Shown: one piece after another, positions 4,455 to 55,290 of the stretch
How the letters are laid out: each line of letters starts with the position of its first letter
Position numbering within the stretch: the first letter of the stretch is position 1
From: Setophaga petechia
Taxonomy: Eukaryota > Chordata > Aves > Passeriformes > Parulidae
Direction of reading: 5' to 3'
Assembly (NCBI GenBank): GCA_024362935.1
Contig: JANCRA010000065.1
Span: 186,001 to 250,000, forward strand
DNA: 64,000 nt
Position numbers and translations under genes: made by a program
The notes under the pieces: model-generated
The model's input: only the letters and a program-made list of their open reading frames with translations
The model's database searches: none
What the model was told of the DNA's origin: nothing

Positions 4455-5387
4455 TTAATGCTTCTGAAAGTATAGAGTAATCAATTTCCTCAGGGCCTCC
4501 TTGAGCTGCTGGTTCCTCAGGCTGTAGATTAGAGGGTTCAGGGCTGGAGGCACCACCGAGTACAGAACTGACAGGGCCAGATCCAGGGATGGGGAGGACA
4601 TGGAGTGAGGCTTCAGGTAGGCAAATACTGCAGTGCTGACAAACAGAGAGACCACGGCCAGGTGAGGGAGGCAGGTGGAAAAGGCTTTCTGCTGTCCCTG
4701 CTCATAGGGGATCCTCAGCACAGCCCTGAAGATCTGCACATAGGAGAAAACAATGAACACAAAACAACCAAAACCTAAGGATGCACCAGCCACAATGAGC
4801 CCAAATTTCCTGAGGTAGGATTTGGAGCAGGAGAGCTTGAGGATCTGTGGGATTTCACAGAAGAACTGGCCCAGGGCATTGCCATGGCACAGGGGCAGGG
4901 AAAATGTATTGGCTGTGTGCATGAGAGAATTGAGAAAGGCACTGGCCCAGGCAGCTGCTGCCATGTGGGCACAAGCTCTGCTGCCCAGGAGGGTCCCGTA
5001 GTGCAGGGGTTGGCAGATGGACACGTAGCGGTCGTAGCACATGATGGTCAGCAGGGAAAGCTCTGCTCCAATGAAGAATACAAAGAAAAAGAGCTGTGTT
5101 GCACATCCAGTGTAGGAGATGTCCCTGGTGTCCCAGAGGGAATTGTGCATGGCTTTGGGGACAGTGGTGCAGATGGAGCCCAGGTCGCTGAGGGCCAGGT
5201 TGAGCAGGAAGAAGAACATGGGCGTGTGCAGGTGGTGGCCGCAGGCTACGGCGCTGATGATGAGGCCGTTGCCCAGGAGGGCAGCCAGGGAGATGCCCAG
5301 CAAGAGGCAGAAGTGCAGGAGCTGCAGCTGCCGCGTGTCTGCCAATGCCAGCAGGAGGAAGTGCCTGATGGAGCTGCTGTTGGACAT
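4455..5387 (-). CDS. Olfactory receptor, OR14-like (bird-expanded class)
   Basis: This intact frame of 310 residues encodes a seven-transmembrane odorant receptor of the plasma membrane that would signal through an olfactory G protein. Visible class motifs, in order, are an N-terminal NSS glycosylation site, the TM1 GN pair, PMFFFLLNLAL in TM2, MCYDRYVSIC after TM3, [10 protein letters not shown] in TM6 and [12 protein letters not shown] in TM7. The length is usual for the family. I chose the ATG at 5387 (MSNSS...) rather than the in-frame ATG at 5426, because a polypyrimidine tract and AG splice acceptor lie between them (acceptor at 5412-5414) and the paralogue at 36305 starts at the same residue. 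It is one of two intact paralogues in the window, in inverted orientation. The ligand is unknown. Confidence 0.93.
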   Translation of the reverse strand: MSNSSSIRHFLLLALADTRQLQLLHFCLLLGISLAALLGNGLIISAVACGHHLHTPMFFFLLNLALSDLGSICTTVPKAMHNSLWDTRDISYTGCATQLFFFVFFIGAELSLLTIMCYDRYVSICQPLHYGTLLGSRACAHMAAAAWASAFLNSLMHTANTFSLPLCHGNALGQFFCEIPQILKLSCSKSYLRKFGLIVAGASLGFGCFVFIVFSYVQIFRAVLRIPYEQGQQKAFSTCLPHLAVVSLFVSTAVFAYLKPHSMSSPSLDLALSVLYSVVPPALNPLIYSLRNQQLKEALRKLITLYFQKH

Positions 5388-5410
5388 TTGTTTCTGCCTT
5401 GGCACGGGAA

Positions 5411-6215
5411 TCTGTAAGAAAAGCAATCATGGAATAGTTGGGTTTGGAGAGGACTTGAAATATCCCAGCACAGCCTGGGGGCACTTTCCCCTCACTGCCT
5501 GCCCAGGGCTCTGCTGCCTGGAGCTGTCCCTGCCTGCAGCTGCTTCCCTGTGCCCAGGGCTGGGCCCTGCCAGTGCTGCCAGAGCCCAGCCCAGCCCTGG
5601 GGGCTCAGCTCTGCCCTGCAGACCCCTCCCAGCTCAGGCACTGCCCAGGGGCAGCTCTGGCTCTGCAGGCTCTGATGGCAACATCAGTTCAACCCTGAGG
5701 AGGCTGGAAAAGGAACACTGATGTTGCCTCTAAGGAGTCCTGTGATAATTTCTGTCACTGCGTGGTTTAGTAACATCGCAGAGACTTTTTTAAATTTTCT
5801 CAACCTGAACCGAGACATGAATATCTATTTGCAATTTCCCACCCAGGCAACCCAGAGCAGTAGATTTAAAAAGCAGATATTTCCCTTTTATACAGCCCCT
5901 GCCTCACTGTGCTCTCTGTATAATCTACTTGGAAATATTCTGGAGGTAAATTTCATGCTGGGAGCAGTCCTGAACAATGCAGCACCCTCCCCACACAAGG
6001 AGAACACTCCCAGGCCTGACCAGCTGTCTCCTCCCACCCAGTTCTTGTCCCCCAGTGCTGGGAGCAGCTGCCAGGGCTGGCTGAGAGCTGTCCCTGGCAG
6101 GCAGCAGAGTCCCTGCCCCAGCACAGCGCCCTGGGCTGCAGGACCCTGCTCTGCAGGACAGCCCTGGGCACCCCTGCCTGCTCTGCACAAGAGACAATCA
6201 GAGAATGTACTCACA
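5411..6215 (-). other. Probable intron between a 5' noncoding exon and the OR coding exon
   Basis: On the minus strand a GTGAGT donor lies at 6214-6209, just after the words TGCAGAGCCT, and a CTTTTCTTACAG acceptor ends at 5412, 24 bases before the OR start codon. The same donor and a matching acceptor (AACAG at 36279-36283) are kept in the paralogous copy. OR genes commonly have one or more 5' noncoding exons spliced to a single coding exon. The use of these sites is inferred only. Confidence 0.45.
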
Positions 6216-12642: not shown

Positions 12643-13887
12643 TCAGCATCGAGTTCCAGATCCTAAACGTTCCGCAGGGGTGCTGGCCATTGCCGTAGGA
12701 GCTCGGAGAGGTGCAAGAGGCGCTAATACCTGCGCTTGGGAAACCCTTGCCTGCTCCTGTAACCTTAACCCCAGCTGTTTGATAGCATCTACCAAAAATG
12801 CTTTTGATCCTACCGGCATCTGAGCTATTCTCCCTAATGCCTCTTTTATGGCCCAATTCGCACCTAACGTGTTAAGCACATTCCTCGCAGCCTGCCTGCT
12901 GTCCTGAAGAGCACACTGTTTCAACATAGCCTCTGCCGTATAATCACATACCCCTACTTTCTCTATCGCGGCAGCAACTTGATCTATAAACAAACCAAAA
13001 GATTCTTCCTGGCCCTGCTTAATTCCACATGCTTTTACTCTGTCTATAGCCAGTCTAACCAATCTCATCGCCTCTTGGTACTTATCTGGTCCTGTCAGAG
13101 CCTGAGGTTCAGTGCAAAGAAACACTCTCAGCCCCATAAACTCATCTGCTGTCACTCCAACCTGACTAACTCCCGATTGCAACTTCGATAGCAACTTCCA
13201 GTCCAGAGCAGATGTTATTGCTCGCAGACCTCCCCCCGCCTGAGTTGGAAAAGTCACCGGGCATGTTATTTGTGTAGCCGCATTAATTGCAACATCCCCT
13301 TTCTCCAAGCCTTCTTTCGCCAGCACAGCCCAAGCCTCCCCCCGTCCCGTGGCAGTGGCCCCCGCTAGGTCGCTGTCCACCCCAGGGATCGGCTCACTGC
13401 TCAGAGGGAGGGCAGCCGGGGCCGGTTTCGGCCATGAATCATTCTCTCCGGGGGGTGCAGATGGCTCACTCACTGCCTCGGTACCAGAATTAAAAGGCGG
13501 TGGTGCCGGAGGAGGCAAAGACACCCTATTAAACACAGGGGGTAATATAGTGTCTTGGGATAAATCTCCCTCATAGGTTCTGTTTTTTGTATGAGCAGCC
13601 GATGCCTGCACCGCTGCTTTCTGTTCTGCCTGATACTGCAGAAACTCATTAAGAATCACTCTCCAAAGTTTTTCTATCTTTTCAGCTGTCCTATCATTAC
13701 GAATCACTCTCCAAAGTTTTCCTATCTTTTCAGCTGTCCTATCATCATCTAAAGTATGAAGGTTAACAAAACAGCCCTTAGCATATCCCCATGCTAGTAA
13801 TCCTGGTAATTCCTTCTTATCCACCCCTTTTACTCCCTTTTTCTCTAGGGTGGTAAAAAATAAATCATATGCTGCTTGCCTGACCAT
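12643..13887 (-). pseudogene. gag: ERV gag: MA, proline-rich linker and CA; NC missing
   Basis: The frame is open from 13995, but I prefer the Met at 13887 (MVRQAAYDLF...) as start. Numbering from 13995, residues 37-150 look like matrix, 150-170 hold a PPPAPPPF late-domain-like stretch, and 255-410 look like capsid with a major homology region (QGQEESFGLF...) near 327. Residues 85-100 and 101-116 are a direct 48-bp tandem duplication (DRTAEKI...). The frame ends without CCHC knuckles, so nucleocapsid is lost. Gag would assemble virus-like particles in the cytoplasm, but this copy is defective. Confidence 0.8.
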
Positions 13888-14074
13888 TTTTATGCGTCGA
13901 CGCTGTTGCGGCTCTTCAGCTTCGGCAGCACGTACGGCCCAAAACCACCTCTGTGATCTTTGGGGGTGCCTTCCCTTTCCCTTTTTTGGCACCACTCCGG
14001 CCGCTTCAGAGCCCGACCCAACTTCTCCGACCGTGGCGTGTCGAGACCCGCTTTCCCCCGTTTCCTTTAGCAGG

Positions 14075-20030: not shown

Positions 20031-20800
20031 ATGGAGTGTAGGGATCATTGTGACACTGAGAGGCCCCATCAAAGCAAGGGTCCATTGTGACACGACGGGA
20101 CCTAATGGAGCTGTGGAGACCATTGTGACACTTTGGGGTGTCATGGAACCAAGGGACCATTGTGACGCTGTGGGATCTCACGGAGCCAAAGATTCATTGT
20201 GACATTGCAAGGCCTCATGGAACCATGGACAGACCATTAGGACACTTCACAGCCTCCTGGAACACTGTGAGGCACCATGGAACAAAGGAGACCATTGTGA
20301 CACTGTGAGGCCACATGGAACCAGTGAGACCATTGTGACCCTGGGGGTCCCCACAGAACCAGAGGAACATTGTGATACTGTGGGGTCTCGTGAAACCAAG
20401 AGGCCTTTGTGACACTGCAGGGCTACATGGAACCAAAGGTGCATTGTGACACAGCAGGGCCTCGTGTCATCAGAGGTCCATTGTGACACTGGGCAACTAA
20501 AGGAGACCACTGTGACACTGCAAACCCCCAGGGTCCAAAGGTCCATTGTGACATTGCATGGCTCGTGGAACAGAGGAGTCACGTCACATTGTGGGGCCTG
20601 GGGAACCACGGAGACCGTTGTGACACTGCAAAGCCTCATGGAATTGTTGGGACAACTGTGACACTGCAAGGCCTTCTGGAACCTAAGTGCCATTATGAAA
20701 CTGTGGGACCCCATAGAAACAAGTCACCATATGGCACTGTGGGGCCTCATGGATCCAAGGCACCATTGTGACACTGTGGGGCCCCACAAAACCAAGGGAA
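20031..20800 (+). repeat. Minisatellite, GGAACCAAGG...CCATTGTGACAC family
   Basis: Clear diverged units run from 20031 to about 20800 and then pass into the ~190-bp repeat. The inverted counterpart is 43.01-44.09 kb, with several units aligning in order, for example the unit with GTCATCAGAGGTCCATTG. Confidence 0.85.
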
Positions 20801-25485: not shown

Positions 25486-26302
25486 AGGCAGAGCTCCCAC
25501 ATGATTCAGCACCAGATGATCCACAATGGGGAATGGGCCTACAAGCATGGGGAATGTGGGAAAGACTTCAGCTGCAGATCCAGCCTTTTGACCCACCAAT
25601 GCAACCACACAGCAGAGAGGCCCTACAAGTCCACCCAGTGTGGGAAGAGGTTTCAGACCAGCTCCCATCTCCTCCGCTGCCAGCAGATTCACTCAGAGGA
25701 GAGGCCCTTCTGCTGCCCCGACTGCGGAAAGGGCTTCAAGTGCAACTCCCAACTCATCAGGCACCAGCACATCCACACTGGGGAGAGGTCCTATGAGTGT
25801 GGGGAGTGTGGGATGAGCTTCAGGTGGAACTTCAGCCTGATCTGCCACCAGAGGATCCACAATGGGGAAAGGCCATACAAGTGTGAGGAATGTGAGATGA
25901 CCTTCAGTCGTAGGCCCCAGCTGATCATCCACCAAATGATCCACACTGGGAAGAGGCCCCACAAGTGTCCCCAGTGTCAGAAGAGGTTTCAGAGCAGCTC
26001 AACTCTCCCCCACCACCAGCGGATTCACACTGTGGAGAGGCCCATCCAATGCCCTGAATGCAGGAAGGGCTTCAAGCACAAATCCACCCTCATCACCCAC
26101 CGGCGCATCCACACTGGGGAGAGGCCCTACGAGTGCCCTCAGTGTGGGAAGAGCTTCACCCAGAGCTCTCACTTGACCCAACACCAACGGAGGCACCGGT
26201 AAGGGAAGCTCTGCCAATGCCCCAACTGCTGGAAGAGCTTCACGCACTGCTCCAGCTTCATCCCCCATGGGAGGATCCACACTGGGAAGAGTCCTGGTGA
26301 CC
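25486..26302 (+). pseudogene. C2H2 zinc-finger array, truncated, with internal stop
   Basis: The frame starts inside a finger helix (SSH-MIQHQMIH) at the OR junction and holds eight more finger positions before a TAA at 26200-26202. A ninth intact-looking finger (CPNCWKSF...HGRIH) follows in the same frame. The first two complete fingers have lost ligands (first Cys replaced by His or Ser, first His replaced by Cys in the second). Fingers three to eight have all C2H2 ligands and TGERPY-type linkers. There is no KRAB, SCAN or BTB domain because the 5' part is missing. Zinc-finger proteins of this type bind DNA in the nucleus, but this copy is probably a pseudogene; a 233-codon frame from the ATG at 25501 remains open. 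Confidence 0.85.
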
Positions 26303-30500: not shown

Positions 30501-31330
30501 GACCACTTAGACACTGCAGGGTGTTGTGGAGCCAAAGGGCATTGTTACACTGTAGGAACTTGTGGAACCAAGGGGATCATTGTGACACTGTGGGTACCAT
30601 GGATCCAAGGGGCCATTGTGACATTGTGGGGTCTTGAGGTACCATGGAGACCATTGTGACACTTTGGGGTCTTCTGAAATGCAGAGGACATTGTGACACT
30701 GCAGAGTACCATGGATCCAAGAGACCATTGTGACACTGTGGAGACCCATGGAACCAAGGACATCAGTGTGGTTCTGTTGGGCTGCATGGTCCCAAGGGAC
30801 CAGTGTGAAGCAGCAGGCCTTTGTGGAGCCAAGAGACAATTGTAGCACTTCAGAGCCTCATGGAGCCAAATGGCTGTTGTGATCCTGCAGGGCACCGTGG
30901 ATCCATGGAGAGCATTGTGGCACTGCAAGGCCCCATGGAATCATGGAGACCGTTGTGACACTGTGGAGCCCCATGGAACCAAAGGAACATTGTGACACTA
31001 TGGGCCTCGTGGAAGCACGGGGCCATTGTGACACTACGAGAACTTGTGGAACCAAAGGGATCATTGTTCCACAACTGGGCCCCAATGGAACCAAGGGGCC
31101 ATTGTGACACAGCGAGGCTTCATGGAAGCAATTGATCATTATGGCACTGTGGGGCCTTGTGGAACCATGGAGACCATTAAGATCCTTAATGACTTGTGTA
31201 ACCAAGGGGCCATTATGACACCACAGGACATGATGGAAGCAAGACAACCATTGTGACATTGCAAGGCCTCATGGAAGCAGGGAGCTACTGTGTCACTGCA
31301 AGTCTCTGTGGAACCAAGGGAACATGAAAT
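30501..31330 (+). repeat. Minisatellite, GGAACCAAGG...CCATTGTGACAC family
   Basis: The most regular plus-strand block of the family in the window; units of about 45-60 bases with CATTGTGACACTGTGG. Confidence 0.88.
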
Positions 31331-36304: not shown

Positions 36305-37234
36305 ATGTCCAACAGCAGCTCCATCAGGCACTTCCTCCTGCTGGCATTGGCAGACACGTGGCAGCTGCAGCTCCTGCACTTCTGCCTCTTGCTGGGCATC
36401 TCCCTGGCTGCCCTCCTGGGCAACGGCCTCATCATCAGCGCCGTAGCCTGCGGCCACCACCTGCACACGCCCATGTTCTTCTTCCTGCTCAACCTGGCCC
36501 TCACTGACCTGGGCTCCATCTGCACCACTGTCCCCAAAGCCATGCACAATTCCCTCTGGGACACCAGGGACATCTCCTACACAGGATGTGCTGCACAGGT
36601 TTTTCTAGTTTTCTTCTTTCTTGGATCAGAATATTTCCTCTTGACCATCATGTGCTACGACCGCTACGTGTCCCTCTGCAAACCCCTGCACTACGGGACC
36701 CTCCTGGGCAGCAGAGCTTGTGCCCACATGGCAGCAGCTGCCTGGGCCAGCGCCTTTCTCAATGCTCTCATGCACACAGCCAATACATTTTCCCTGCCCC
36801 TGTGCCATGGCAATGCCCTTGGCCAGTTCTTCTGTGAAATCCCACAGATCCTCAAGCTCTCCTGCTCCAACACCCACCTCAGGGAACTGGAGCTCATTGC
36901 TCTGAGTGCGAACTTGGGATTTGGCTGTTTTGTTTTCATAGCTTTCTCCTATGTACAGATCTTCAGAGCCGTGCTGAGGATCCCCTCTGAGCAGGGAAGG
37001 CACAAAGCCTTTTCCACCTGCCTCCCTCACTTGGCCGTGCTCTCCTTGTTCTTCAGCACCTCATTTTTTACCTATCTGAATCCCCCCTCCATGTCCTCCC
37101 CATCCCTGGATCTCACAGTGTCAGTTCTTTACTCAGTGGTGCCTCCCGCCCTGAACCCCCTCATCTACAGTCTGAGGAACCAGGAGCTCAAGGCTGCAGT
37201 GTGGAGAATGATGACTGGATTACCGAAACATTAA
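36305..37234 (+). CDS. Olfactory receptor, OR14-like (bird-expanded class)
   Basis: Intact 309-residue seven-transmembrane receptor, highly similar to the one at 4455-5387. It has the NSS glycosylation site, [31 protein letters not shown] and [12 protein letters not shown] motifs. Differences from its paralogue cluster in TM3, TM5, TM6 and the C-terminal tail, positions that in OR families contribute to ligand choice, so the two receptors may have different odorant ranges. The start is fixed by the upstream splice acceptor and by the paralogue. It is expected at the ciliary membrane of olfactory neurons, coupled to an olfactory G protein. No disabling change is seen. Confidence 0.94.
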   Translation: MSNSSSIRHFLLLALADTWQLQLLHFCLLLGISLAALLGNGLIISAVACGHHLHTPMFFFLLNLALTDLGSICTTVPKAMHNSLWDTRDISYTGCAAQVFLVFFFLGSEYFLLTIMCYDRYVSLCKPLHYGTLLGSRACAHMAAAAWASAFLNALMHTANTFSLPLCHGNALGQFFCEIPQILKLSCSNTHLRELELIALSANLGFGCFVFIAFSYVQIFRAVLRIPSEQGRHKAFSTCLPHLAVLSLFFSTSFFTYLNPPSMSSPSLDLTVSVLYSVVPPALNPLIYSLRNQELKAAVWRMMTGLPKH

Positions 37235-43009: not shown

Positions 43010-44090
43010 GGTTTTATGGTGCCCTATAGTGTCACAATGACACCTTGGTTCCATGAGGCCCCACAGTGTCACAATGGTCTCCGTGGCTCCCCAGGTCCCA
43101 CAATGTCACGTGACAATTCTGTTCCATGAGCCCTGCAATGTCACAATGGACCTTTGGACCCTGGGGGTTTGCAGTGTCACAATGGTCTCCTTTGGCTCCA
43201 CAGTGTCACAATGGACCATTGATGACAGGAGGCCCCTCTGTGTCACCCTGGAGCTTTGGTTCCATGCAACCCTGCAGTGTCACAATGATCCCTTGGTTTG
43301 ATAGGGTTCCACAATGTCACCATGGCCCCTTGGTTCCATGCTGTTCTGCACTGTCCCAGTGGTTTCCTTTGGCTCCACAGTGTCACAATGGACTACTGAT
43401 GACATGAGGCCCTGCAATGTCACAATGGACTTTTGGTTCCATGCAGCCCTGCAGTGTCACAAAGGTCTCTTGGATTCACGAGGCCCCACAGAATCACAAT
43501 GGTCCTCTTGGTTCTGTGGGGACCCCGAGGGTCACAATGGTCTCACTGGTTCTATGAAGCCTCACAGTGTCACAATGCTTTGCTTATTCCTTGGGGCCTC
43601 ACAGCATCACAATGGTCTCCATGATTCCCTGAGTCCCTTCAGTGTCACAGTGGCCCCTTGGTTCCATGAGGCTGTGAAGTGTCTTAGTGGTGTCCTCATA
43701 GTTCCATGAGGCCTGGCAATGTCTCAATGGACCTTTGTCTCCATGGAGTCTCGCAGTGTCACAATGTCCCCTTGGTTCCATGACACCCCACAGTGTCACA
43801 ATGGTCTCCACAGTTCCATGAGGCTCCACAGTGTCACAAATGGACCCTTGGTTTGATGGGGACTCACAGTGTCACAATGATCCCTACATTCCATGGAGCC
43901 ACAAAGTGTCAAAATGGTCCCTTTAGTCTCACAAGGCCCCAGAGTGTCAAAATGGTCCCTTGGTCTCACAGTGCTCCACAGTGTCACAATGGCCCCCTTG
44001 GTCTCACAGGGCCCCACAGTGTCACAGTGGTCCCTTGGTCTCACAGGGCCCCACAGTGTCACAATGGTCCCTTTGTTCCATGGGCCCTGT
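43010..44090 (-). repeat. Minisatellite, reverse orientation
   Basis: Over 1 kb of units of the form CCACAGTGTCACAATGG...CCTTGGTTCCATG; inverted counterpart of 20.03-20.80 kb. The end near 43.9-44.06 kb has a more homogeneous variant with CTTGGTCTCACAGGGCCCC, suggesting recent local amplification. Confidence 0.88.
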
Positions 44091-45850: not shown

Positions 45851-46201
45851 CCTCTATGACACAGCCCCAGAGGTGCTGCTGTGACACAGCCCCCTCTGGG
45901 CCGTGCCACAGCCCCTGCCAGTGCTGAGCCCCTGTGAGCTCTGTCTGTGCCCTGCTGGTGTCCCTGAGGGGCCCTGGCAGTGCCCCAGCCCTGCTGGGCT
46001 GTGCACAGGAGCTGCTCTTGGCCAGAGCTGTCTCTCTGCAGCGCTGCCCTTGCCAGGAGCTGCCTCTGGGCCAGGAGCCCGGCCCAGCTCAGCAGCACAG
46101 ACACAGCACAAGGACTTTAATGACCCTCTGGGGCTTTGGTGCTCTTTGCATCAGACCCAGTCCCTCAGAATGTGCTCAAAGAACTTCTCAAGTGCTCAAA
46201 G
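45851..46201. other. Duplicated OR-flank module interrupted by the young provirus
   Basis: Similar to 6.42-6.6 kb and 35.1-35.3 kb. The last four bases (AAAG, 46198-46201) are the target duplication of the provirus. Confidence 0.6.
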
Positions 46202-46628
46202 TGTTGCCCGATAGATAAAGGACACAAAACTCGGCAAAGTTTTGTGCGGTGCTTTATTGAGGGCCCCCGAGGGTCCGTGGACTCACGTCCCAAGCCAGAG
46301 CCCCCTTTTCTCGGGTACAGGTGCTCTTCTTTATACACATAATCCATAACAAAATATCCAAGAAACAGTTCAGCTTGAATAACCGACAAACCCCCCTTAC
46401 AATACAATCCTAAGTTCAAAACAAAATCATCCATCTTATACCTATCATATTGTACTGCCTCAGAAAAACTGGCTAGACTTGTTATCTTCCCTATACTAGT
46501 TAATTATTTATCAAGTTCTCATGACTACCTGCTAAGTTACACACAAACTCAACACACAGCTTCCACAAAAAACCGATTCACACAACTCATAATTAAATAT
46601 TTTGCTAAATTTCATTTCTTTTCCAACA
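46202..46628 (-). mobile_element. 3' LTR of the young provirus
   Basis: TGTTGGAAAAG...CGGGCAACA, 427 bp, identical to the 5' LTR. It includes a TATAAA box (46335-46330) and an AATAAA signal (46258-46253). Confidence 0.97.
46253..46258 (-). terminator. Polyadenylation signal in the 3' LTR
   Basis: AATAAA on the minus strand, about 75 bases after the TATA box. The downstream GCCGAGTTTTGTGTCC is a plausible GU-rich element. Confidence 0.75.
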
Positions 46629-46641
46629 TTTCCCCCCTTTT
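46629..46641 (-). promoter_or_regulatory. Polypurine tract of the young provirus
   Basis: AAAAGGGGGGAAA on the minus strand, directly abutting the 3' LTR. Confidence 0.9.
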
Positions 46642-46671
46642 GAGCATCCTTCAGCCCTGCTGCAAGGATGC

Positions 46672-48780
46672 TCAACTAACAGTATTGACAGTGACGTCTT
46701 CGTAATGAGGTGGGGAGTGTTCTTCATTCTGCCGCCCACGGGTCATTGCCTTCAGCAGCCGGAGAGATCGCTTCCTTTCCCTTTCGATCACACCTAAAAG
46801 GCATCTATATACAATCCATGTAATCACTAAAAATACCAAAAACATTAGTGCATACTCTATGACAGACGTAATCCAGCCAGATAGGTGAAGCCCCAAGGAA
46901 TCAAATACTGCTCCTATCCAATTATGCTGTGCTTCCTTTTCAATTTCCTTGGTTTTTGTTTCCACTTCTGCCAATTGGGAAATATCTTTCTCAACTTCAA
47001 GTGTAACATTTGGAATATGCACACAGCAATGATCTATGCTCCTACTCAGGTAACCACAAACTCCGTGTTCTTTTAACAGTAACAAATCCAATGCCATTCT
47101 GTTTTGTAGGGTCATTCTTGATGTGGCTTGCAATTGCAAATTTAAATCTTTAAATCCCTTCTTAGTAGCTGCTGCCAACCTTTCTGTCTGTCCTAACAAG
47201 TTGTCAAGCATTTCCCTATTTCGATATGTCGCAATTGGAGGGAATAATGACTCTAATATCCATCCAAATTTTACTCCTGAGCCAGGTTCATGCCACTGCT
47301 CCTCTAGGGAGCTTTCCCTCTTTTTGAGCCCTTTCCTTTGGGTCAATTTATTCTGTTTCCAGTACGGACACAATGTGGGAACCCCTAGGGTGATTTGTGT
47401 TACTGATCCATCTAGGGGTAAATGTGTGGTCCACTGTCCGTGTCCCAACACCCAAACCAAATTTCCAGGGCTGTGCACAGCAGTATATCTGCAATCTATA
47501 GGCCCATTCATAGACTCCTGGCTCACCGTGTGATCATATCCCCTACACTCACATCCCCATTTTAATGCCATTTTCACCGGTACCAATCCGATTCGGTCTT
47601 CCGGTGTATCACACGTAAAAACCTCAGTACAATTCCAATCCTCTTTCTGCGGCCTAAACTCTCGGGAAGATGTAGACGTGACAATGGCTCTATAATGTGA
47701 CTGATTCTTTACTCCTGACCATTGAATACACCATTGCACTTCCCCAAGGTAACTATAATGTTCCAAAATACTGGGTCCCCATAATGTCTTCCAGCTTTTC
47801 CAGGTGTCAAAATTCTGTGTGACATTCTGACAACTCATCTCATTTTGCTGAGATTTCGTTTTTATTCGTATTGTATTGCATGGCTCATCTACTGGGGTTG
47901 CAATCAAACACTTCCTGGTATTTTGAATCCATCCATAATAAGTAGGTTTCTTTTCACATTCCTCTTTAGTCATAACCCGAACAGTCATACACAAATCCTT
48001 CCATACCTCTACCGATTTGGGAACTGACTGGCAAGACCATGAAACATTCTTAAATGATTCAGGCATTTTGGTTACCGGTATGATCCCCCAGGGAATTGGT
48101 TCACCTGCAGCCTGTGGTAATGGCAAACAAGCTGTTATTTTAGTCACATTCTGCATAATCCCAAAATCTTTAATCAATCCTACCACTAAATTCTCCTGCT
48201 CAGCACTTCGTTCTATTGTGTTGTTAGCCTCCCGTCTACTCCTTCTACCGTGTCTCTGTAAGGATAACATCATTCTGTCATGCCCCCCCCATGCATCTTT
48301 AGCTGCCCAACACCAATATTCTCCTGTATCGTTTGTGGTTACCTTGGTAAGATTCAGTACCGTGTTTCCTTGTTGTTTATCCTGATCCCCGCCGACACCT
48401 TTCTTGCCTCGGCTTCTTTCGGCCCCCCGTTGCCATATTGCAATAACTTCACCGGCCTCAACTTTCTGGCTGTCAAGTATAACACAAGTTAATTGAACAT
48501 CCATCCCTGTAACCTTTGTTTCTTCAGCCTGTACTAAAGTAGACCCTTGAATGGGTATTAGTCTCATGATCACCAGCAGCAGTATAATTAAGAAGGCGGC
48601 TTTGCGCGGAAGATCATCCTGGTTGGAAACAGTATCTGGGTTTCCCATCGGAGCGGTGCCTTCTTTACCCTGGTGTAATGGATCCAAGCATCCATCCCCT
48701 GGACCTTCACCGCCGTGTAGGTCGTCATCATCACCTGGTGGGGTCCGCTCCATGATTCCCGCAGCGGGTCCGTGATCCAC
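46672..48780 (-). CDS. env: Env glycoprotein with N-terminal Ig V-like domain
   Basis: An open frame of 702 codons, overlapping the end of pol by 193 bases. The likely start may be the Met at residue 45 (48648), giving a signal peptide with the hydrophobic core AAFLIILLLV at residues 61-70. Residues 86-175 look like an Ig V-set domain: Cys99, Trp116 and DTGEYWC ending at Cys157. A polybasic RRSRR follows at 179-183. A Cys-rich SU region with many N-glycosylation sites follows (about 184-490). TM has a heptad region, LLLLKEHGVC and a C-X9-CC loop (575-586) in place of the usual CX6CC, and a membrane anchor at about 644-661. No strong second furin site is seen at the SU/TM boundary; KKR at 486-488 is a weak candidate. 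Retroviral Env mediates receptor binding and membrane fusion; the role of the Ig domain is unknown. Confidence 0.88.
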   Translation of the reverse strand: MDHGPAAGIMERTPPGDDDDLHGGEGPGDGCLDPLHQGKEGTAPMGNPDTVSNQDDLPRKAAFLIILLLVIMRLIPIQGSTLVQAEETKVTGMDVQLTCVILDSQKVEAGEVIAIWQRGAERSRGKKGVGGDQDKQQGNTVLNLTKVTTNDTGEYWCWAAKDAWGGHDRMMLSLQRHGRRSRREANNTIERSAEQENLVVGLIKDFGIMQNVTKITACLPLPQAAGEPIPWGIIPVTKMPESFKNVSWSCQSVPKSVEVWKDLCMTVRVMTKEECEKKPTYYGWIQNTRKCLIATPVDEPCNTIRIKTKSQQNEMSCQNVTQNFDTWKSWKTLWGPSILEHYSYLGEVQWCIQWSGVKNQSHYRAIVTSTSSREFRPQKEDWNCTEVFTCDTPEDRIGLVPVKMALKWGCECRGYDHTVSQESMNGPIDCRYTAVHSPGNLVWVLGHGQWTTHLPLDGSVTQITLGVPTLCPYWKQNKLTQRKGLKKRESSLEEQWHEPGSGVKFGWILESLFPPIATYRNREMLDNLLGQTERLAAATKKGFKDLNLQLQATSRMTLQNRMALDLLLLKEHGVCGYLSRSIDHCCVHIPNVTLEVEKDISQLAEVETKTKEIEKEAQHNWIGAVFDSLGLHLSGWITSVIEYALMFLVFLVITWIVYRCLLGVIERERKRSLRLLKAMTRGRQNEEHSPPHYEDVTVNTVS

Positions 48781-51700
48781 TTCTTGACGTACACCTGGTC
48801 CCCAGGCTGAATGTCGTGGACAGGGTTCTCCAGCGTGAGTGGTCTATTCCACTGCAGCGTATTTCTTAAAGAGTTCAAAATCTTATTCAGTGACATAACA
48901 TACTCTGCAATTGCCTGGTCCCCGCTCACATGTACCTCCCCTTTTAATACAGTTGCATGATATGGTTTGCCATATAGTATCTCATATGGACTTACACCTA
49001 CCTTTTCCCTTGGTTTTATTCGAATCCTGAGTAGGGCCAAAGGCAAAGCTTGAGGCCAGTGCAGTTTAGCTTCCTGGCAAATCTTTTTAATTTGCCCTTT
49101 CAGGGTTTGGTTCATTCTTTCCACCTTCCCACTAGACTGAGGTCTCCAGGGGGTATGCAAATCCCAGTTTATATCCAACATTCGTGCTACATCCTGCACT
49201 ACCCCAGCTATAAAGTGCGGTCCCCTATCTGATGACAATCCTAAAGGTACTCCAAATCTTGGTATTATTTCTTTTAACAGGGTTTTTACCACCTCCTTTG
49301 CCTGATTAGTTCTACATGGAAAAGCTTCTGGCCACCCTGAAAATGTACATACGTACACTAACAAGTATCTGTACCCTTGTGCCCTAGGCAATTCAGAAAA
49401 ATCGACTTGCCAGTAATCTCCTGGTTGTGGCCCAATTTGCAATCTTCCCATCTGTACCTGTCTCCTTACTACTGGATTATTTTTCAAACATACCGGGCAC
49501 ATTGCATTAACTCTCTTTGCCATTGTTAACATCTGATTAGAGATTATTTCATTCTTCAAAAATTTTACCAATACTTCTGCCCCCCAATGGCATTTATTGT
49601 GTTCTGTTTCCAAAATAAATTTCATTATGCAGGTAGGTACCACTATTTGTCCCATTGGTGTAACGTACCACCCGAGTTGGTTCCTCTGTGCTCCTAGCAA
49701 GTTTATTAGCTTTCCATCTTCTATTGAATATTTGGGCTCTTGATTCAGGTACGGGGTAGCTGGATTTGTTCTTACCGGTATCAATGCCATTTGAGTCCAT
49801 ACTTCCCGTGCCACTTGCCGTGCTGTAACATCAGCAAATCGATTTCCTCTGTAAACGTCTCCCTCCGCAGTCTGATGTCCCCTGACATGCATCACTGCAA
49901 CTGCTTTGGGACAATGTACCGCATCCAGTAGCTGTAGCACTTCTTCCCGGTGCTTGATGTTAGCTCCCTGTGAATTCAAAAGCCCCCTTTCTTTCCATAA
50001 TGCCCCATGTACATGGACCACACCAAAGGCGTATTTAGAATCTGTCCAGATATTAACCCTTTTGTCCTTGCTCAAATACAGAGCTCTGGTAAGTCCAATC
50101 ACCTCTGCTTTCTGGGCCGAAGTTCCAGGTAACAGAGCCTTTGCTTCTATTACCTGATCCAAAGTTACCACTGCATATCCAGCGTAGCGAGTCCCATTCT
50201 CGACAAAACTGGATCCATCAGTGTATAGTTCCCATTCAGGTTCTTCCAATGGCTCATCCTTTAGGTCAGGTCTGCTGGCATATACTTGTTCAATCACCTC
50301 CACGCAATCGTGCACCAGTTCCCCAGCCTCCTGGTCACTGCGTAGAAACTCTGCTGGATTGACATGATTAGTAGTCCTTATTTCAATATCATCCTGCTCT
50401 CTCAGGACGGCCTGGTATTGCAACATTCGGTTTGATGATAGCCAGTGACCCCCCTTTTGCTCCAAAACAGCCATGACCATATGGGGAACAAACACTTTCA
50501 TTTTTGCCCCCAAAGTCAATTTCCGGGCCTCTTGAATAAGGATTATTGTTGCTGCCACGGCCCGTAAGCACGAAGGCCATCCGGAACTTACCGAATCCAG
50601 TTGTTTAGAGAAGTATCCTACTGGCCTCTTCCATGATCCCACCTTCTGGGTGAGGACCCCCAATGCCAGTTTTTGCCTCTCATTCACATACAACTGGAAT
50701 TCCTTGGTCAGGTCAGGGAGTCCCAAGGCTGGGGCCTCTTTCAGTGCCTGCTTCAGCTCCTGGAAGGCCTTCTTTCGCTGTGTTGTCCACTCCAGCTGAT
50801 GCTGCTTCAGGGCCTCATACAGTGGCTTGGCTAGGAGACCGAAATTCATGATCCACAGTCGACACCATCCCACCATTCCTAGAAAAGATCTCAATTCTTG
50901 ATGACTACGAGGCAAAGGAATAGCACATATTGCTTCTATTCGGTTTACTCCCAAACGTCTCTGTCCCTGTGTGATCTCGCAACCGAGATAAATGACGCTA
51001 TTTTTAAGCAGTTGAGCTTTTTCCTTAGAGACCCGGTACCCTGCTTGGCCCAGCATGTTGAGTAATTTAATTGTTAATTCCACACATATTTCCCTTTCCT
51101 TAGTAGCCAAAAAGATGTCGTCCACGTACTGCAGGACTATATACAAGGATGGGGATATTGTTACCTGGGTTGTCTTCCACACCTCTAGCTCCTTGGCCAG
51201 TTGTTTTCCAAAAATAGTAGGGCTGTGTCGGTACCCTTGTGGTAATCTCGACCACGTAAGCTGCTTCTTCCTCCCAGAATCAGGATCTTCCCACTCGAAG
51301 GCAAAATATTTCCTACTCTCTACTGCCAGTGGGATGCAGAAGAAGGCATCTTTAAGGTCAATCACTGAAAACCATTTAAACTCCTCCGATACAGATGTTA
51401 ACAAGGTATAAGGATTTGCAACAACTGGGTGTATGTCTTTCACTATTTCATTAATAGCCCTTAGGTCCTGTACCAAACGATACTTACCATTAGGCTTCTT
51501 CACTGGAAAAATTGGAGTATTATACTCCGATTCACATTCCTGTAATATTCCTTGAGCCAAAAACTGTTTAATCAACGGGGCTACTCCCCTCCTTGCCTCA
51601 AGCTTCAAGGGGTATTGCTTTACCCTCACTGGTTGGGCCCCTTCCTTTAGTTCCACTTTTACTGGCTGTGCTGCTTTAGATTTTCCAGGGGCCCCTGACT

Positions 51701-52103
51701 CCCATACCCAGGGTACTACAGCCTGCTCAATTTCTTCTGGAATAGGAGAAACATCCACTTCCTTGATCACAAAAAGGCCTGCTATTTGTTCCTCAGGTAT
51801 TTCCAATTTTACCCTTCCCTTTTCAAATATTATTTTCACATTAAGTCGGGACAACAGGTCCCTGCCAAGAAGGGGTGTGGGGCAATTTGGCATATACAAA
51901 AATTGGTGATCTAATTGTTTCCCCCCAAACCTAAGATTTAAAGGTTGTAAAAATGGTTGTTTCTCCAGCTTCCCCGTTGCCCCTACCACCTGTACCATTG
52001 TATCACTCAAAGGTCCCAGTCGTTTATTAAGTACAGAATATGTGGCTCCAGTATCTACCATAAATTCTTGATCCTTTCCATTTATTTCTAAAACTACCCT
52101 CAA
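48588..52103 (-). CDS. pol: Pol: protease, reverse transcriptase, RNase H, integrase
   Basis: The frame is open for 1171 codons and is in phase with gag, four codons after the gag stop. Numbering within it: protease with DTGA at 17-20; reverse transcriptase with SVIDLKDAF around 245-254 and YVDD at 326-329; RNase H with YTDG (Asp629), Glu667, Asp688 and Asp758; integrase with an N-terminal zinc site (His835, His839, Cys869, Cys872) and the catalytic triad Asp901, Asp959, Glu995 with the exact 35-residue spacing. All key catalytic residues are present. It would be made as a Gag-Pol fusion through read-through of TGA and would act in cytoplasmic particles and the nucleus. The LPQG motif before YVDD is typical of the gamma group. 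Confidence 0.95.
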   Translation of the reverse strand: MRVVLEINGKDQEFMVDTGATYSVLNKRLGPLSDTMVQVVGATGKLEKQPFLQPLNLRFGGKQLDHQFLYMPNCPTPLLGRDLLSRLNVKIIFEKGRVKLEIPEEQIAGLFVIKEVDVSPIPEEIEQAVVPWVWESGAPGKSKAAQPVKVELKEGAQPVRVKQYPLKLEARRGVAPLIKQFLAQGILQECESEYNTPIFPVKKPNGKYRLVQDLRAINEIVKDIHPVVANPYTLLTSVSEEFKWFSVIDLKDAFFCIPLAVESRKYFAFEWEDPDSGRKKQLTWSRLPQGYRHSPTIFGKQLAKELEVWKTTQVTISPSLYIVLQYVDDIFLATKEREICVELTIKLLNMLGQAGYRVSKEKAQLLKNSVIYLGCEITQGQRRLGVNRIEAICAIPLPRSHQELRSFLGMVGWCRLWIMNFGLLAKPLYEALKQHQLEWTTQRKKAFQELKQALKEAPALGLPDLTKEFQLYVNERQKLALGVLTQKVGSWKRPVGYFSKQLDSVSSGWPSCLRAVAATIILIQEARKLTLGAKMKVFVPHMVMAVLEQKGGHWLSSNRMLQYQAVLREQDDIEIRTTNHVNPAEFLRSDQEAGELVHDCVEVIEQVYASRPDLKDEPLEEPEWELYTDGSSFVENGTRYAGYAVVTLDQVIEAKALLPGTSAQKAEVIGLTRALYLSKDKRVNIWTDSKYAFGVVHVHGALWKERGLLNSQGANIKHREEVLQLLDAVHCPKAVAVMHVRGHQTAEGDVYRGNRFADVTARQVAREVWTQMALIPVRTNPATPYLNQEPKYSIEDGKLINLLGAQRNQLGWYVTPMGQIVVPTCIMKFILETEHNKCHWGAEVLVKFLKNEIISNQMLTMAKRVNAMCPVCLKNNPVVRRQVQMGRLQIGPQPGDYWQVDFSELPRAQGYRYLLVYVCTFSGWPEAFPCRTNQAKEVVKTLLKEIIPRFGVPLGLSSDRGPHFIAGVVQDVARMLDINWDLHTPWRPQSSGKVERMNQTLKGQIKKICQEAKLHWPQALPLALLRIRIKPREKVGVSPYEILYGKPYHATVLKGEVHVSGDQAIAEYVMSLNKILNSLRNTLQWNRPLTLENPVHDIQPGDQVYVKKWITDPLRESWSGPHQVMMTTYTAVKVQGMDAWIHYTRVKKAPLRWETQILFPTRMIFRAKPPS

Positions 52104-52111
52104 ATCCCGTT

Positions 52112-52118
52112 CTAGTCA
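52112..52118 (-). promoter_or_regulatory. Gag stop in read-through context TGACTAG
   Basis: On the minus strand the gag stop TGA is followed by CTAG, the context best known for efficient translational read-through in animal genes. Gag and pol are in the same frame across it. Gammaretroviruses make Gag-Pol by read-through, usually at TAG. Confidence 0.7.
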
Positions 52119-53099
52119 GCTCTGGTTCTGATAGTTTCCCAAAACTAATGCTTGAGCAGCATCGACTGGTCCTCCCGCAGAAGCATTCCCCATTGCCCTT
52201 ATTCCCACGTTTCCCATGCCCATTCCTCCCCTGACTGGGCATTCATTTTTCCAGTGTCCTAATTGTCGGCAAAACGCACACTGGTTTGGATCCAACCTCC
52301 CCGTGTTAGGTGCAAACCCAAATCCTCCCCGACCTCTTGCAATCCCCCTCTGTCCACGATTTGCTCCTCCCCGACCTCGGCCCCGAAAGCCTGCCCCTGT
52401 CACCACAGCCAAAATACCAGCTTGTTGTCTTTTTGCAGTTTCTTTTTCCCTATTATTATATACCTTCCATGCTACCTCCAGCATTTTATCCAAACTCCTG
52501 GTATCCTCCCCTTCCAACTTTTGTAACTTTTTCCTAATATCCTCTTGCGATTGCCCCATAAACAACAATGCCAATTGAAGTTTTCCTGATTGCTCCTCTA
52601 CATCTAAATTTGTAAACTTCCGAGCCGCATCCTTTAACCGTTCCAAAAAAGCAGAAGGAGACTCATTCTTGTCCTGCTTAACCGAATACAACTTAGACCA
52701 ATTCATAGTTTTAGGTATTCCTGTTCTGATTCCTTCCACCAGCATTTCCTGATATCGTTTCACAGCCCTTATTCCTCCTGTAGAGTTCGGATCCCATTTG
52801 GGTTCCTCACTCGGTACCAACTCATCAACTGTTTCATTTAATTGTCTCAACCGAATCTCCTCCCGGGCCTTTTCCCGAGTGGCTTTAATAACCATTTCCT
52901 TTTCAGTAGAGTCCATTATAGTATCTAATAATACCTGTAAATCATTCCAGTCTGGATTCTGAGTTTTTATCACCATTTTAACCACCCTAGCCACTCTCTC
53001 CGGGTCCTCCCGGTAACTCCCTGCTGATTGTTTCCATATTACCAAATCCCCAGGGGAGAAAGGTACTTTTATAAGTATCCTTTCCCCCTGTGGTCCCAC
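52116..53099 (-). pseudogene. gag: gag, 3' part: capsid and nucleocapsid
   Basis: This 327-codon frame covers capsid (VPFSPGDLVIWKQSAG near the start; QNPDWNDLQVLLDTIM; FLERLKDAARKFTNLD in the homology region) and a nucleocapsid with one CX2CX4HX4C knuckle (CAFCRQLGHWKNEC, residues about 274-287) after an Arg/Gly-rich stretch. This is the gammaretrovirus pattern. It is shifted by one base relative to the upstream matrix part, with the break in a G-rich tract at about 53.10-53.23 kb. It may be a real one-base lesion or a homopolymer sequencing error. Confidence 0.88.
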
Positions 53100-53739
53100 A
53101 GCTTCCCTTAAAGGTGCAATTAACTGTGGTTGCCCCTTCTGCCCCCTTCCTCCCCTTGCGAGTTCGCTCCGCTAACGGAGTTCTTTTAACATCCTCCTTT
53201 TTTTCATCATCATCATCAATATCGCTGTCACTGGAGCCCGTTTTTATAAATATGTCAGCAGGGGGAGGACAAGGCACGCCAGGAGCAACCGAAACCCTCG
53301 GAGGGGCTACACAATAAGACAGCTCTTCATCAATTGAAGGATACAAATTACTCTCCTTTCTCTCTTTGCATGCCAAACATTCTCTCTCATCATTCACTTC
53401 CAAAACCAAAATACCACACTCTTTTTGCCATTCCTCTTTCCGATACAACACAAAAAACAAATCTAAGTACGGTATTTCATCCAATTTCTCATTTCTCCTT
53501 AAAAACTGCATCAAAGATTCCATTATTTTCAATTCCACAGTACCATTTACCGGCCAACCCCTTTCCCCAATCTCATATTCAGGCCACCAACGATTACAAT
53601 AATCTATCATTTTACTTTTATCCAATTCTTGATAATACCCTTCACTTTTCCACCGCTTCAATATACACCCCAATGGAGTATTTTCAGGTATTTTACCATT
53701 GGCTTGCACTAACGTTTTGAAAGTTTTAAGAGACATCAT
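52987..53739 (-). pseudogene. gag: gag, 5' part: matrix and p12-like region
   Basis: The 250-codon frame starts MMSLKTFKTLV right after the leader repeats. It has a matrix-like helical region to about residue 130 (including RWWPEYEIGERGWP), then a Pro-rich and acidic segment (SSDSDIDDDDEKKEDVKR). It lacks the N-terminal Gly that a myristoylated matrix would need. The last ~50 codons are out of frame with the capsid part because of the frameshift. Confidence 0.85.
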
Positions 53740-53746
53740 ATTACAA

Positions 53747-53931
53747 CAATTCCACCTTTAGTCCCAATAAACCAGTATCACAGCAGTTCCACCTTTAGTT
53801 CCAATGAACCAATATCACAGCAATTCCACCTTTAGTTCCAATAAACCAATATCACAGAAATTCCACCTTTAATTCCAATAAACCAATATTACAGAAATTC
53901 CACCTTTAATTCCAATAAACCAATATTACCA
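53747..53931 (-). repeat. Five 37-bp tandem repeats in the proviral leader
   Basis: The plus-strand word TTCCACCTTTA recurs at 53750, 53787, 53824, 53861 and 53898, exactly 37 bases apart, with the rest of each unit also conserved (CCAATAAACCAATATCACAG). The array ends only a few bases before the gag start, where retroviral packaging and translation signals usually lie. Its function is unknown. Confidence 0.92.
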
Positions 53932-54072
53932 TCTCGCCTTCCTTCCCAAAAACCAAATAGGAGGCGAGTCCTGATCCTGCGTACTTAAACGTACGTCTTA
54001 TGGTCAGGGCCTAGGCTTTTCCACCACCAAATCCAAATCCAATTACCACCTTTTAATATAAAGCACCTTCGG

Positions 54073-54079
54073 GCTTACC
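54073..54079 (-). promoter_or_regulatory. Candidate major splice donor
   Basis: Minus strand AAAG/GTAAGC, close to the consensus, about 140 bases after the LTR end and upstream of gag. Retroviruses make env mRNA from such a leader donor. The acceptor is not identified with confidence. Confidence 0.5.
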
Positions 54080-54195
54080 TTTGCAGCTTGTCCGACAGGC
54101 GCGGGGGGTCGGAGCACGGATCGATGGCTCCTCCGAGAAGCGCTCGGTGCCGGCTGGAGTAATCGAGGCGTGAGCCGCCCCGGCTGCCTTCGGAG

Positions 54196-54213
54196 TCCTG
54201 CCGCGGGTCGCCA
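54196..54213 (-). promoter_or_regulatory. Putative primer binding site, tRNA not assigned
   Basis: The minus strand reads TGGCGACCCGCGGCAGGA, starting seven bases after the LTR end. It begins with the expected TGG and its first eight bases fit some tRNA-Arg ends, but the rest does not match a tRNA I can name. Confidence 0.5.
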
Positions 54214-54220
54214 AAGAAGC

Positions 54221-54647
54221 TGTTGCCCGATAGATAAAGGACACAAAACTCGGCAAAGTTTTGTGCGGTGCTTTATTGAGGGCCCCCGAGGGTCCGTGGA
54301 CTCACGTCCCAAGCCAGAGCCCCCTTTTCTCGGGTACAGGTGCTCTTCTTTATACACATAATCCATAACAAAATATCCAAGAAACAGTTCAGCTTGAATA
54401 ACCGACAAACCCCCCTTACAATACAATCCTAAGTTCAAAACAAAATCATCCATCTTATACCTATCATATTGTACTGCCTCAGAAAAACTGGCTAGACTTG
54501 TTATCTTCCCTATACTAGTTAATTATTTATCAAGTTCTCATGACTACCTGCTAAGTTACACACAAACTCAACACACAGCTTCCACAAAAAACCGATTCAC
54601 ACAACTCATAATTAAATATTTTGCTAAATTTCATTTCTTTTCCAACA
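54221..54647 (-). mobile_element. 5' LTR of the young provirus
   Basis: 427 bp, TG...CA, identical by eye to the 3' LTR. U3 is AT-rich; the TATA box is at 54354-54349 and AATAAA at 54277-54272. Confidence 0.97.
54349..54354 (-). promoter_or_regulatory. TATA box of the 5' LTR promoter
   Basis: TATAAA on the minus strand, about 77 bases upstream of the AATAAA, placing the transcription start at about 54.32 kb. Confidence 0.7.
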
Positions 54648-55290
54648 AAAGTGAGATTGAAATACTGAAGTTTCTTGTACTTTAAAGAGATCCCTGTGAG
54701 GGACAGGCCTGAGAAAGTGTCCCCAGGTTCCGGGGAGAGCAGAAGACTGCAGGCAGTGATAACAGCTGGGAACAAACAAGGCAAAAGTGTCACTGGTGCT
54801 GAGCAAACCTGGATGTGTGTCGGGAATGCAAAGGGCCAAGGCCTGAGCCCCAGACCCTGGCCAGGCAGATCCTGTCCCTCCCTCCTTGCTCAGGGCTCTT
54901 CCCAGGATGGGCACTGGCATGTGGGGATGGGCAATGCCAAGGGCAGGAGCATGGGGCGGCCCCTGCCAGGCTGCTGAGCAGGGACAAGGAGGCAATGAGG
55001 CCCCAGGCCTGCAAGGGTCACTTGTCCCCTCGTGGCCTCAGGCCCAGGCCCAGCAGCCATGGCCAAAGTGCTGCCCAAGTTGGCTCTGTCAGGGCTGCCT
55101 TGCAGCTGCTGCCCATCCCTGTGCCCTGTGCAGCCCAGGCTGTCCCACGCTGTCCCTGCCCTGCGCCTCTGTCCCTGCAGGCTGTCGGCATCCCCCGGCT
55201 GCCCCACCTGGCTGGGCCCTTCCTTTGCTGACAGCTCTGCCTCCTGCCTGCCTCTGCCTGCCCACACAGAGCCTTGGCCTTGATACCAAA
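54648..55290. other. Duplicated GC-rich module (right copy)
   Basis: Inverted paralogue of 18.56-19.44 kb. Its first four bases AAAG are the right target duplication of the provirus. No gene is recognised. Confidence 0.65.

What the first reader, a model, noticed from the sequence alone, without database searches (positions are those of the whole stretch)
48232..48525. Retroviral Env with an N-terminal immunoglobulin V-like domain and its own polybasic site
Seen in the sequence: residues 86-175 of the env frame have the Cys...Trp...DxGxYxC layout of a V-set domain (Cys99, Trp116, DTGEYWC to Cys157). The YWC ending recalls CD300/pIgR/TREM-type receptors. An RRSRR cleavage-like site follows at 179-183, ahead of the normal Cys-rich SU region. 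Known: retroviral Env proteins do not normally carry an Ig fold. Inference: the virus captured a host Ig exon or evolved an Ig-like receptor-binding or decoy module that can be released by furin. The frame is open and the provirus young, so selection may have kept it.
Basis: partly seen in the sequence, partly recalled or inferred. Interest (0 to 1): 0.88.

Follow-up and report, generated by a model that had tools for sequence, protein, structure and literature searches.

The report
Bird retrovirus envelope with captured immune-ligand domain
A young virus fossil in a bird genome carries a cell-entry protein with an antibody-like domain at its front; relatives in many birds carry up to three such domains, the first resembling immune-checkpoint ligands such as PD-L1, and a bird poxvirus protein resembles the whole set.

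The parts
46202..54647 (-). Provirus of a gamma-type-like bird endogenous retrovirus, 8446 bp, flanked by AAAG at 46198-46201 and 54648-54651
   Evidence: LTR pair and duplication
54221..54647 (-). 5' LTR
   Evidence: 427 of 427 bases identical to the 3' LTR
46202..46628 (-). 3' LTR, preceded in sense by a purine tract
52119..53739 (-). gag region, read in two overlapping ORFs; the second holds Gag_p30 (1.5e-39) and a zinc knuckle just under its cut-off
48591..52103 (-). pro-pol, one open frame: protease, RT, RNase H, integrase with MLV-type C-terminal domain
46672..48648 (-). env, open, 658 aa from ATG 48648 (an earlier in-frame ATG is at 48753; the frame overlaps the end of pol)
48547..48648 (-). 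Env leader and signal-peptide region (residues 1-34)
   Evidence: helix 10-29 in the model; sequence
48247..48546 (-). Ig domain (residues 35-134)
   Evidence: Pfam V-set, fold match 35-133
48316..48546 (-). Front of the Ig domain (residues 35-111), derived from domain Ig1 of the three-Ig module
   Evidence: Ig1 profile 49 bits against Ig3 profile 9 bits; 27/64 identical to P0001 86-149
48247..48315 (-). End of the Ig domain (residues 112-134, starting WCWAAKD), derived from domain Ig3
   Evidence: Ig3 profile 18 bits, no Ig1 match above 8 bits; with the basic site 15/29 identical to P0001 361-389 and 18/27 to P0027 215-241
48232..48246 (-). RRSRR, furin-type site between Ig domain and SU core (residues 135-139)
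   Evidence: RxxR within 40 aa before the SU core in 30 of 36 rows (window included), against 15% of 40-aa windows in the rest of the same proteins
47317..48195 (-). SU core, from ENLVVGLIKDFG (residue 152) to about residue 444; no CXXC motif
   Evidence: end placed by eye at LKKR
46675..47316 (-). TM subunit, p15E-like, with the cysteine motif CX9CC
   Evidence: TLV_coat, MLV/filovirus/syncytin TM chains
47023..47058 (-). CGYLSRSIDHCC (CX9CC) in place of CX6CC

Best explanation
Shown by sequence and models: this Env belongs to a bird retroviral family in which up to three Ig domains (Ig1 B7-like V-set, Ig2 a V-like domain, Ig3 I-set-like) sit between signal peptide and a gamma-type-like SU/TM protein and are mostly followed by an RxxR site. 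The window copy, like an annotated protein of the warbler Geothlypis, keeps one hybrid domain: the front of Ig1 joined in frame to the last strands of Ig3 inside the motif that both share before the second Cys, so Ig2 and most of Ig1's back and Ig3's front are gone. Inferred: the full module is a captured, B7/PD-L-like ligand that works on its own as an immune modulator. It is made as the first part of Env and freed, or held only loosely, after cleavage at RxxR. A bird poxvirus carries a homologue of the whole module as a separate protein of about that size, which fits independent action. Inferred for the window copy: having lost the Asp-Tyr strand and two domains, it probably no longer binds the ancestral partner and serves as a smaller cap or spacer on SU, or is being lost.
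For: Ig domain and fold. Hybrid origin: each half matches a different domain profile, and P0034 (Geothlypis trichas) has the same junction at 93.6% identity over all 658 residues. Close relatives show other collapses: P0005 keeps whole Ig1 then the tail of Ig3, P0038 joins Ig2 to the tail of Ig3. Family: of 45 proteins 6 show three Ig domains (3 complete, 3 cut at the front of Ig1), 5 Ig1+Ig2, 1 Ig1 plus part of Ig2, 1 Ig1+Ig3, 8 Ig1 only, 5 a truncated Ig1, 1 Ig2 only, 1 the hybrid, 17 none, of which at least 11 lack the start of SU and so say nothing (for the 11). P0014 is predicted as three Ig domains, pLDDT blocks 65-92 over 71-380. B7 affinity of Ig1: an 11-sequence profile finds CD276 1.1e-29 (8.7e-10 for its best single domain), PD-L2 from 5e-12, PD-L1 from 1.2e-10, while the Ig3 profile finds titin, CEA/CEACAM and contactins and Ig2 little. 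A single relative's Ig1 also finds CD276 and PD-L1 first. Asp-Tyr after the second Cys: 22 of 25 proteins with that strand; PD-L1 Asp122 and Tyr123 are PD-1-binding hot spots (PMC10974325, passages). RxxR in 30 of 36 rows. The Ig part holds only its own two cysteines. Poxvirus homologue SWPV1-183, 332 aa, 42% identity over 339 columns to P0014, E 2.6e-44, next hit 13%; its paper lists it with canarypox CNPV081, 'Ig-like domain protein', 54% (PMC5390406, passages). Ig region as conserved as the rest between window and P0034: 94.0% against 94.8% SU and 93.1% TM; leader 85.3%.
Against: No binding, cleavage or shedding was tested. No host donor was found: of 806 word-limited candidates 6 passed, none a B7 gene. 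The window copy lacks the PD-L-like strand, and its own region, searched alone, finds CEA/CEACAM1, pIgR, titin and antibodies, with no PD-L1, PD-L2 or CD276 among the 60 of 166 rows shown. In the Ig1 search non-B7 multi-Ig chains (DIP-alpha, CEA) rank among the B7 rows, and 1802 sequences passed with 60 shown. Structure alone does not single out B7: PD-L2 (14.2 A over 177 residues, two domains) and B7-H6 are tied with many Ig chains. Six of 36 rows have no RxxR, two of them Ig-less; four of the 30 share one Hirundo sequence there, and in P0007, P0026 and P0032 the only match is RELR. LTR identity dates the copy, not selection; no DNA of relatives was at hand for dN/dS. Domain counts from annotated genes may be affected by predicted introns.
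Confidence: 0.5

Rival explanations
1. The Ig module is the receptor-binding head of Env: it recognises the entry receptor, possibly a B7 partner on lymphocytes, and stays non-covalently on SU after cleavage.
For: Receptor-binding domains of gamma-type Envs lie in the N-terminal half of SU (PMC9967133, section 14). The module is N-terminal and varied in number and sequence. A profile of SU/TM regions matched solved viral chains only in TM, so the usual head may be missing or diverged.
Against: Relatives without Ig exist (P0024, P0037, P0042, P0045; the first two are annotated gene models), so the SU core seems able to do without it. Repeated in-frame losses suit an accessory better than the only receptor head. 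The poxvirus homologue stands alone. The SU core is itself a confidently modelled beta-rich region (pLDDT blocks mostly 76-93 over 191-420, with a dip to 53).
Confidence: 0.3
2. In the window copy the hybrid domain is a passenger: a deletion product in an element spreading inside germ cells, with no function left.
For: It lost two domains, a three-residue stretch ahead of the first Cys and the Asp-Tyr strand; the gag frame is split; neighbouring lineages show several different collapses.
Against: Cys, Trp and frame are kept, and the Ig region differs from P0034 no more than SU or TM (6 of 100 residues, 15 of 290, 15 of 217).
Confidence: 0.2
3. The domain is Env's own receptor-binding domain, which has an Ig-like core in MLV (recalled), drifted into a V-set look; nothing was captured.
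For: The Ig-like core of the MLV receptor-binding domain is recalled knowledge.
Against: V-set and B7 sequence matches, three tandem domains of different Ig types, no retroviral receptor-binding domain among the PDB rows shown (60 each), and relatives without the stretch.
Confidence: 0.03
4. Assembly or gene-model artefact: an Ig exon wrongly joined to env.
For: Several relatives are automatic gene models that may contain introns.
Against: In the window the frame is continuous in one young provirus; the Geothlypis protein repeats the junction; several unnamed short-contig proteins (P0005, P0014, P0040) carry Ig plus SU.
Confidence: 0.02

Closest known systems
Gamma-type retroviral Env (MLV, ALV, syncytins; filovirus GP2 by TM)
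   Same: TM profile match (TLV_coat, MLV p15E, GP2, syncytins); basic site between SU and TM
   Different: CX9CC instead of CX6CC, no CXXC in SU; extra N-terminal Ig module with its own RxxR
Dolphin gammaherpesvirus De2, a PD-L1 homologue (PMC9514091; abstract and sections 20, 25 read)
   Same: Virus-borne B7/PD-L-type V domain
   Different: De2 is a free-standing host copy (71% overall, 93% in Ig1) shown to bind PD-1. Here the domain is distant, fused to Env, untested, and altered in the window copy. That paper's own searches found no other obvious viral PD-L1 homologue
CrocERV31 nectin3 capture (PMC4299795, passages)
   Same: Endogenous retrovirus carrying a three-Ig host-type protein
   Different: nectin3 replaces env there; here the Ig module is fused in front of a complete Env
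Avipoxvirus SWPV1-183 / canarypox CNPV081 Ig-like proteins (PMC5390406, abstract and passages)
   Same: SWPV1-183 matches the whole three-Ig module of P0014, 42% identity over 339 columns
   Different: Separate poxvirus gene without SU/TM; function not described in the passages seen
CD300/pIgR/TREM receptors
   Same: YWC ending; pIgR among PDB matches of the window region (2.2e-5)
   Different: That ending belongs to Ig3; the front is B7-like; no second disulfide in the window domain

Membership tests
Immunoglobulin superfamily, V-set | Profile match above the curated cut-off | tested here: met
   V-set 36.3 bits for the region, 26.7 for the whole protein, cut-off 26
Immunoglobulin superfamily, V-set | Ig sandwich with Cys-Cys and core Trp | tested here: met
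B7 family / PD-1 ligands | Sequence affinity of the V domain to B7 proteins (relatives' Ig1) | tested here: met
   CD276, PD-L2, PD-L1 lead among 177635 PDB sequences, though non-B7 multi-Ig chains (DIP-alpha, CEA) lie between them in the whole-chain ranking
B7 family / PD-1 ligands | Sequence affinity of the window's own hybrid domain to B7 proteins | tested here: inconclusive
   No PD-L1, PD-L2 or CD276 in the 60 of 166 rows shown
B7 family / PD-1 ligands | Asp-Tyr on the last strand, as in PD-L1 (window copy) | tested here: not met
   The window strand comes from Ig3; 22 of 25 relatives with the strand keep Asp-Tyr. The window copy is therefore not filed as a B7 member
B7 family / PD-1 ligands | Binding to PD-1, CD28 or another B7 partner | not testable with these tools
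   needs protein
Gamma-type Env | TM related to p15E/TLV_coat | tested here: met
   TLV_coat 23.8 bits, cut-off 22.5
Gamma-type Env | CX6CC motif in TM | tested here: not met
   CX9CC in 5 of 5 proteins checked; P0003 lacks the first Cys. So gamma-type-like, not filed as a canonical member
Gamma-type Env | CXXC in SU (absent in alpharetroviruses) | tested here: not met
   none in 5 of 5
CD300/pIgR/TREM receptors | Second intradomain disulfide (recalled) | tested here: not met
   Only Cys55 and Cys113 in the window domain
Avipoxvirus SWPV1-183-type protein | Alignable three-Ig module (relative P0014) | tested here: met
   42% over 339 columns; the poxvirus sequence itself was not fetched, and the window hybrid was not compared

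The most novel reading that the evidence does not exclude
A three-part retroviral Env (Ig module | SU | TM) in which the virus makes and releases a B7/PD-L-like checkpoint-ligand mimic as part of its entry protein, with the same module exchanged between bird retroviruses and avian poxviruses, and with repeated domain collapse in passerine lineages.
Probability: 0.35. Interest if true: 0.95.

Novelty: new variant of a known kind. Interest (0 to 1): 0.84.

Why it matters
Capture of a host gene by a retrovirus usually costs it viral genes (PMC4299795, passages). Here an immune-type module sits in front of a complete Env, recurs across many birds, and has a poxvirus counterpart. If it binds B7 partners it would be a retroviral case of checkpoint mimicry and a natural record of how such ligands evolve. 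The poxvirus match makes module exchange between two virus classes that share bird hosts directly testable by a tree. Ig-bearing env genes left in bird genomes could also have been co-opted.

Tried and rejected
CD300/pIgR/TREM origin: dropped, because the YWC ending belongs to Ig3 and the front to B7-like Ig1. Private capture by this virus: dropped. Donor gene: searched with a five-sequence module alignment; 6 hits of 806 candidates, five of them Env-family Ig sequences (one already known) and one a fish JAM2A at 4e-5; inconclusive because the search needs shared words. The wider Env search scored only the 7995 candidates sharing most words. Related DNA in viral contigs: three scans (Env, Ig3, Ig2) gave 25, 12 and 23 pattern matches and no relative. 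PHROGs: nothing. PDB match for SU by sequence: nothing outside TM; the fold search of the window model was filled by the Ig part, so SU's fold is untested. Ig-less state of duck P0022 and parrot P0031 left open: they look like gene-model fusions. Literature: no paper on an Ig domain in a retroviral Env surfaced among the rows listed in searches (17 of 19; 19 of 20; 20 of 135; 15 of 406; 2 of 2); PD-L1/B7 homologues of viruses: 79 (15 of 61); avipox Ig proteins: 115, 116. Searches served context. The library holds open-licence papers only.

Full report
WHAT IS THERE. The finding lies in env of a provirus on the minus strand at 46202-54647. Its LTRs are identical over 427 of 427 bases, it is flanked by AAAG, pol is open with an MLV-type integrase end, and gag reads in two overlapping frames. 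Env is open for 658 codons from ATG 48648 and further upstream to ATG 48753.

IT IS A HYBRID. Homologue searches gave 33, then 45 proteins in all; all that carry an organism name are from birds. Six carry three Ig domains ahead of SU; one of them, P0014, is predicted with three clear Ig domains at 66-378. Against profiles of the three domains the window's front half scores 49 bits for Ig1 and 9 for Ig3, and its end 18 bits for Ig3 with nothing above 8 for Ig1. The switch lies in the motif that both domains share before the second Cys. Geothlypis has the same switch. P0005 and P0038, also close, have different ones. So the domain was made by in-frame loss of the middle of a three-domain module.

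THE FAMILY. In one search, of 45 proteins 6 show three Ig domains (3 complete, 3 cut at the front of Ig1), 5 Ig1+Ig2, 1 Ig1 with part of Ig2, 1 Ig1+Ig3, 8 Ig1 alone, 5 a truncated Ig1, 1 Ig2 alone, 1 the hybrid, and 17 none. At least 11 of the 17 lack the start of SU and say nothing about the front. In a tree of 29 SU/TM cores (three of 32 rows were left out as shorter than 151 residues) one well-supported clade of 22 passerine, mousebird and unnamed rows all carry Ig sequence, whole or cut, with three-Ig members scattered through it. The other clade of 7 has one Ig-bearing member (Strigops) and members with none. The likeliest course is an early three-Ig state in the large clade and repeated loss; the root is a drawing midpoint only, and some annotated models may hide introns.

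THE BASIC SITE. RxxR lies within 40 residues before the SU core in 30 of 36 rows, the window included, against 15% of 40-residue windows in the rest of the same proteins. Rows are not independent: P0033, P0041 and P0043 share P0006's sequence there, and for P0007, P0026 and P0032 the only match is RELR. Some members without Ig have it too (P0024, P0037), others do not (P0042, P0045), so it is not simply part of the captured piece. The Ig domain has only its own two cysteines, so after cleavage nothing covalent would hold it (inference).

THE POXVIRUS MATCH. The three-Ig model's top hit among predicted viral structures is SWPV1-183 of Shearwaterpox virus: 42% identity over 339 columns, E 2.6e-44. 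The next hit has 13% at 5.5e-16. The genome paper lists it as 332 residues, 54% identical to canarypox CNPV081, 'Ig-like domain protein' (PMC5390406, abstract and passages). Its length leaves room for little beyond a signal peptide and three Ig domains, so it may be secreted (inference). I did not have its sequence, so direction and donor are open. CNPV081 occurs in one paper of the library, that one.

HOW IT MAY WORK. Three readings remain: a freed or loosely held immune-ligand mimic, a receptor-binding head, and, for the window copy, a passenger. The stand-alone poxvirus homologue, the cleavage site, the missing covalent link and the relatives without Ig favour the first for the full module. 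The loss of the Asp-Tyr strand argues that the window copy no longer has that activity. The Ig region is as conserved as SU and TM between the window and P0034 (94.0, 94.8, 93.1%; leader 85.3%), so it is not visibly decaying.

AGAINST WHAT IS KNOWN. De2 of a dolphin herpesvirus is a PD-L1 copy shown to bind PD-1, and its authors found no other obvious viral homologue (PMC9514091, abstract and sections 20, 25). CrocERV31 replaced env by nectin3, a three-Ig protein (PMC4299795, passages). A captured Ig module in front of a complete retroviral Env did not surface among the listed rows of my literature searches, which cover open-licence papers only; in PMC9967133 and PMC10536682, searched for the word, 'Ig-like' does not occur. 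The Env resembles gamma-type Envs in TM but has CX9CC for CX6CC and no CXXC, so I call it gamma-type-like.

Noticed in passing
window 53738-53926: A 37-bp unit repeated 5.1 times (92% match) in the provirus leader just ahead of gag.
   Followed up: no
window 47023-47058 and relatives: TM cysteine motif is CX9CC rather than CX6CC in all five Envs checked, which would change the loop that links SU and TM.
   Followed up: partly
window 52119-53739: gag reads in two overlapping ORFs although the LTRs are identical.
   Followed up: no
window 12646-13995 (-): A second retroviral gag-like ORF (Gag_p24_C 6e-5, below its cut-off) from another element.
   Followed up: no
window 4458-5426 (-) and 36305-37231 (+): Two very similar olfactory receptor ORFs on opposite strands (7tm_4, 1e-47 and 3e-47).
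   Followed up: no
window 25501-26199 (+): C2H2 zinc-finger ORF made largely of 84-bp repeats.
   Followed up: no
window 402-581, 20276-20491, 30540-31178, 43021-44087: What looks like the same 37-bp degenerate tandem repeat, on both strands.
   Followed up: no
P0022 (duck, annotated): Env of this family joined in the model to other retroviral sequence including RT; gene model or recombinant not resolved.
   Followed up: no
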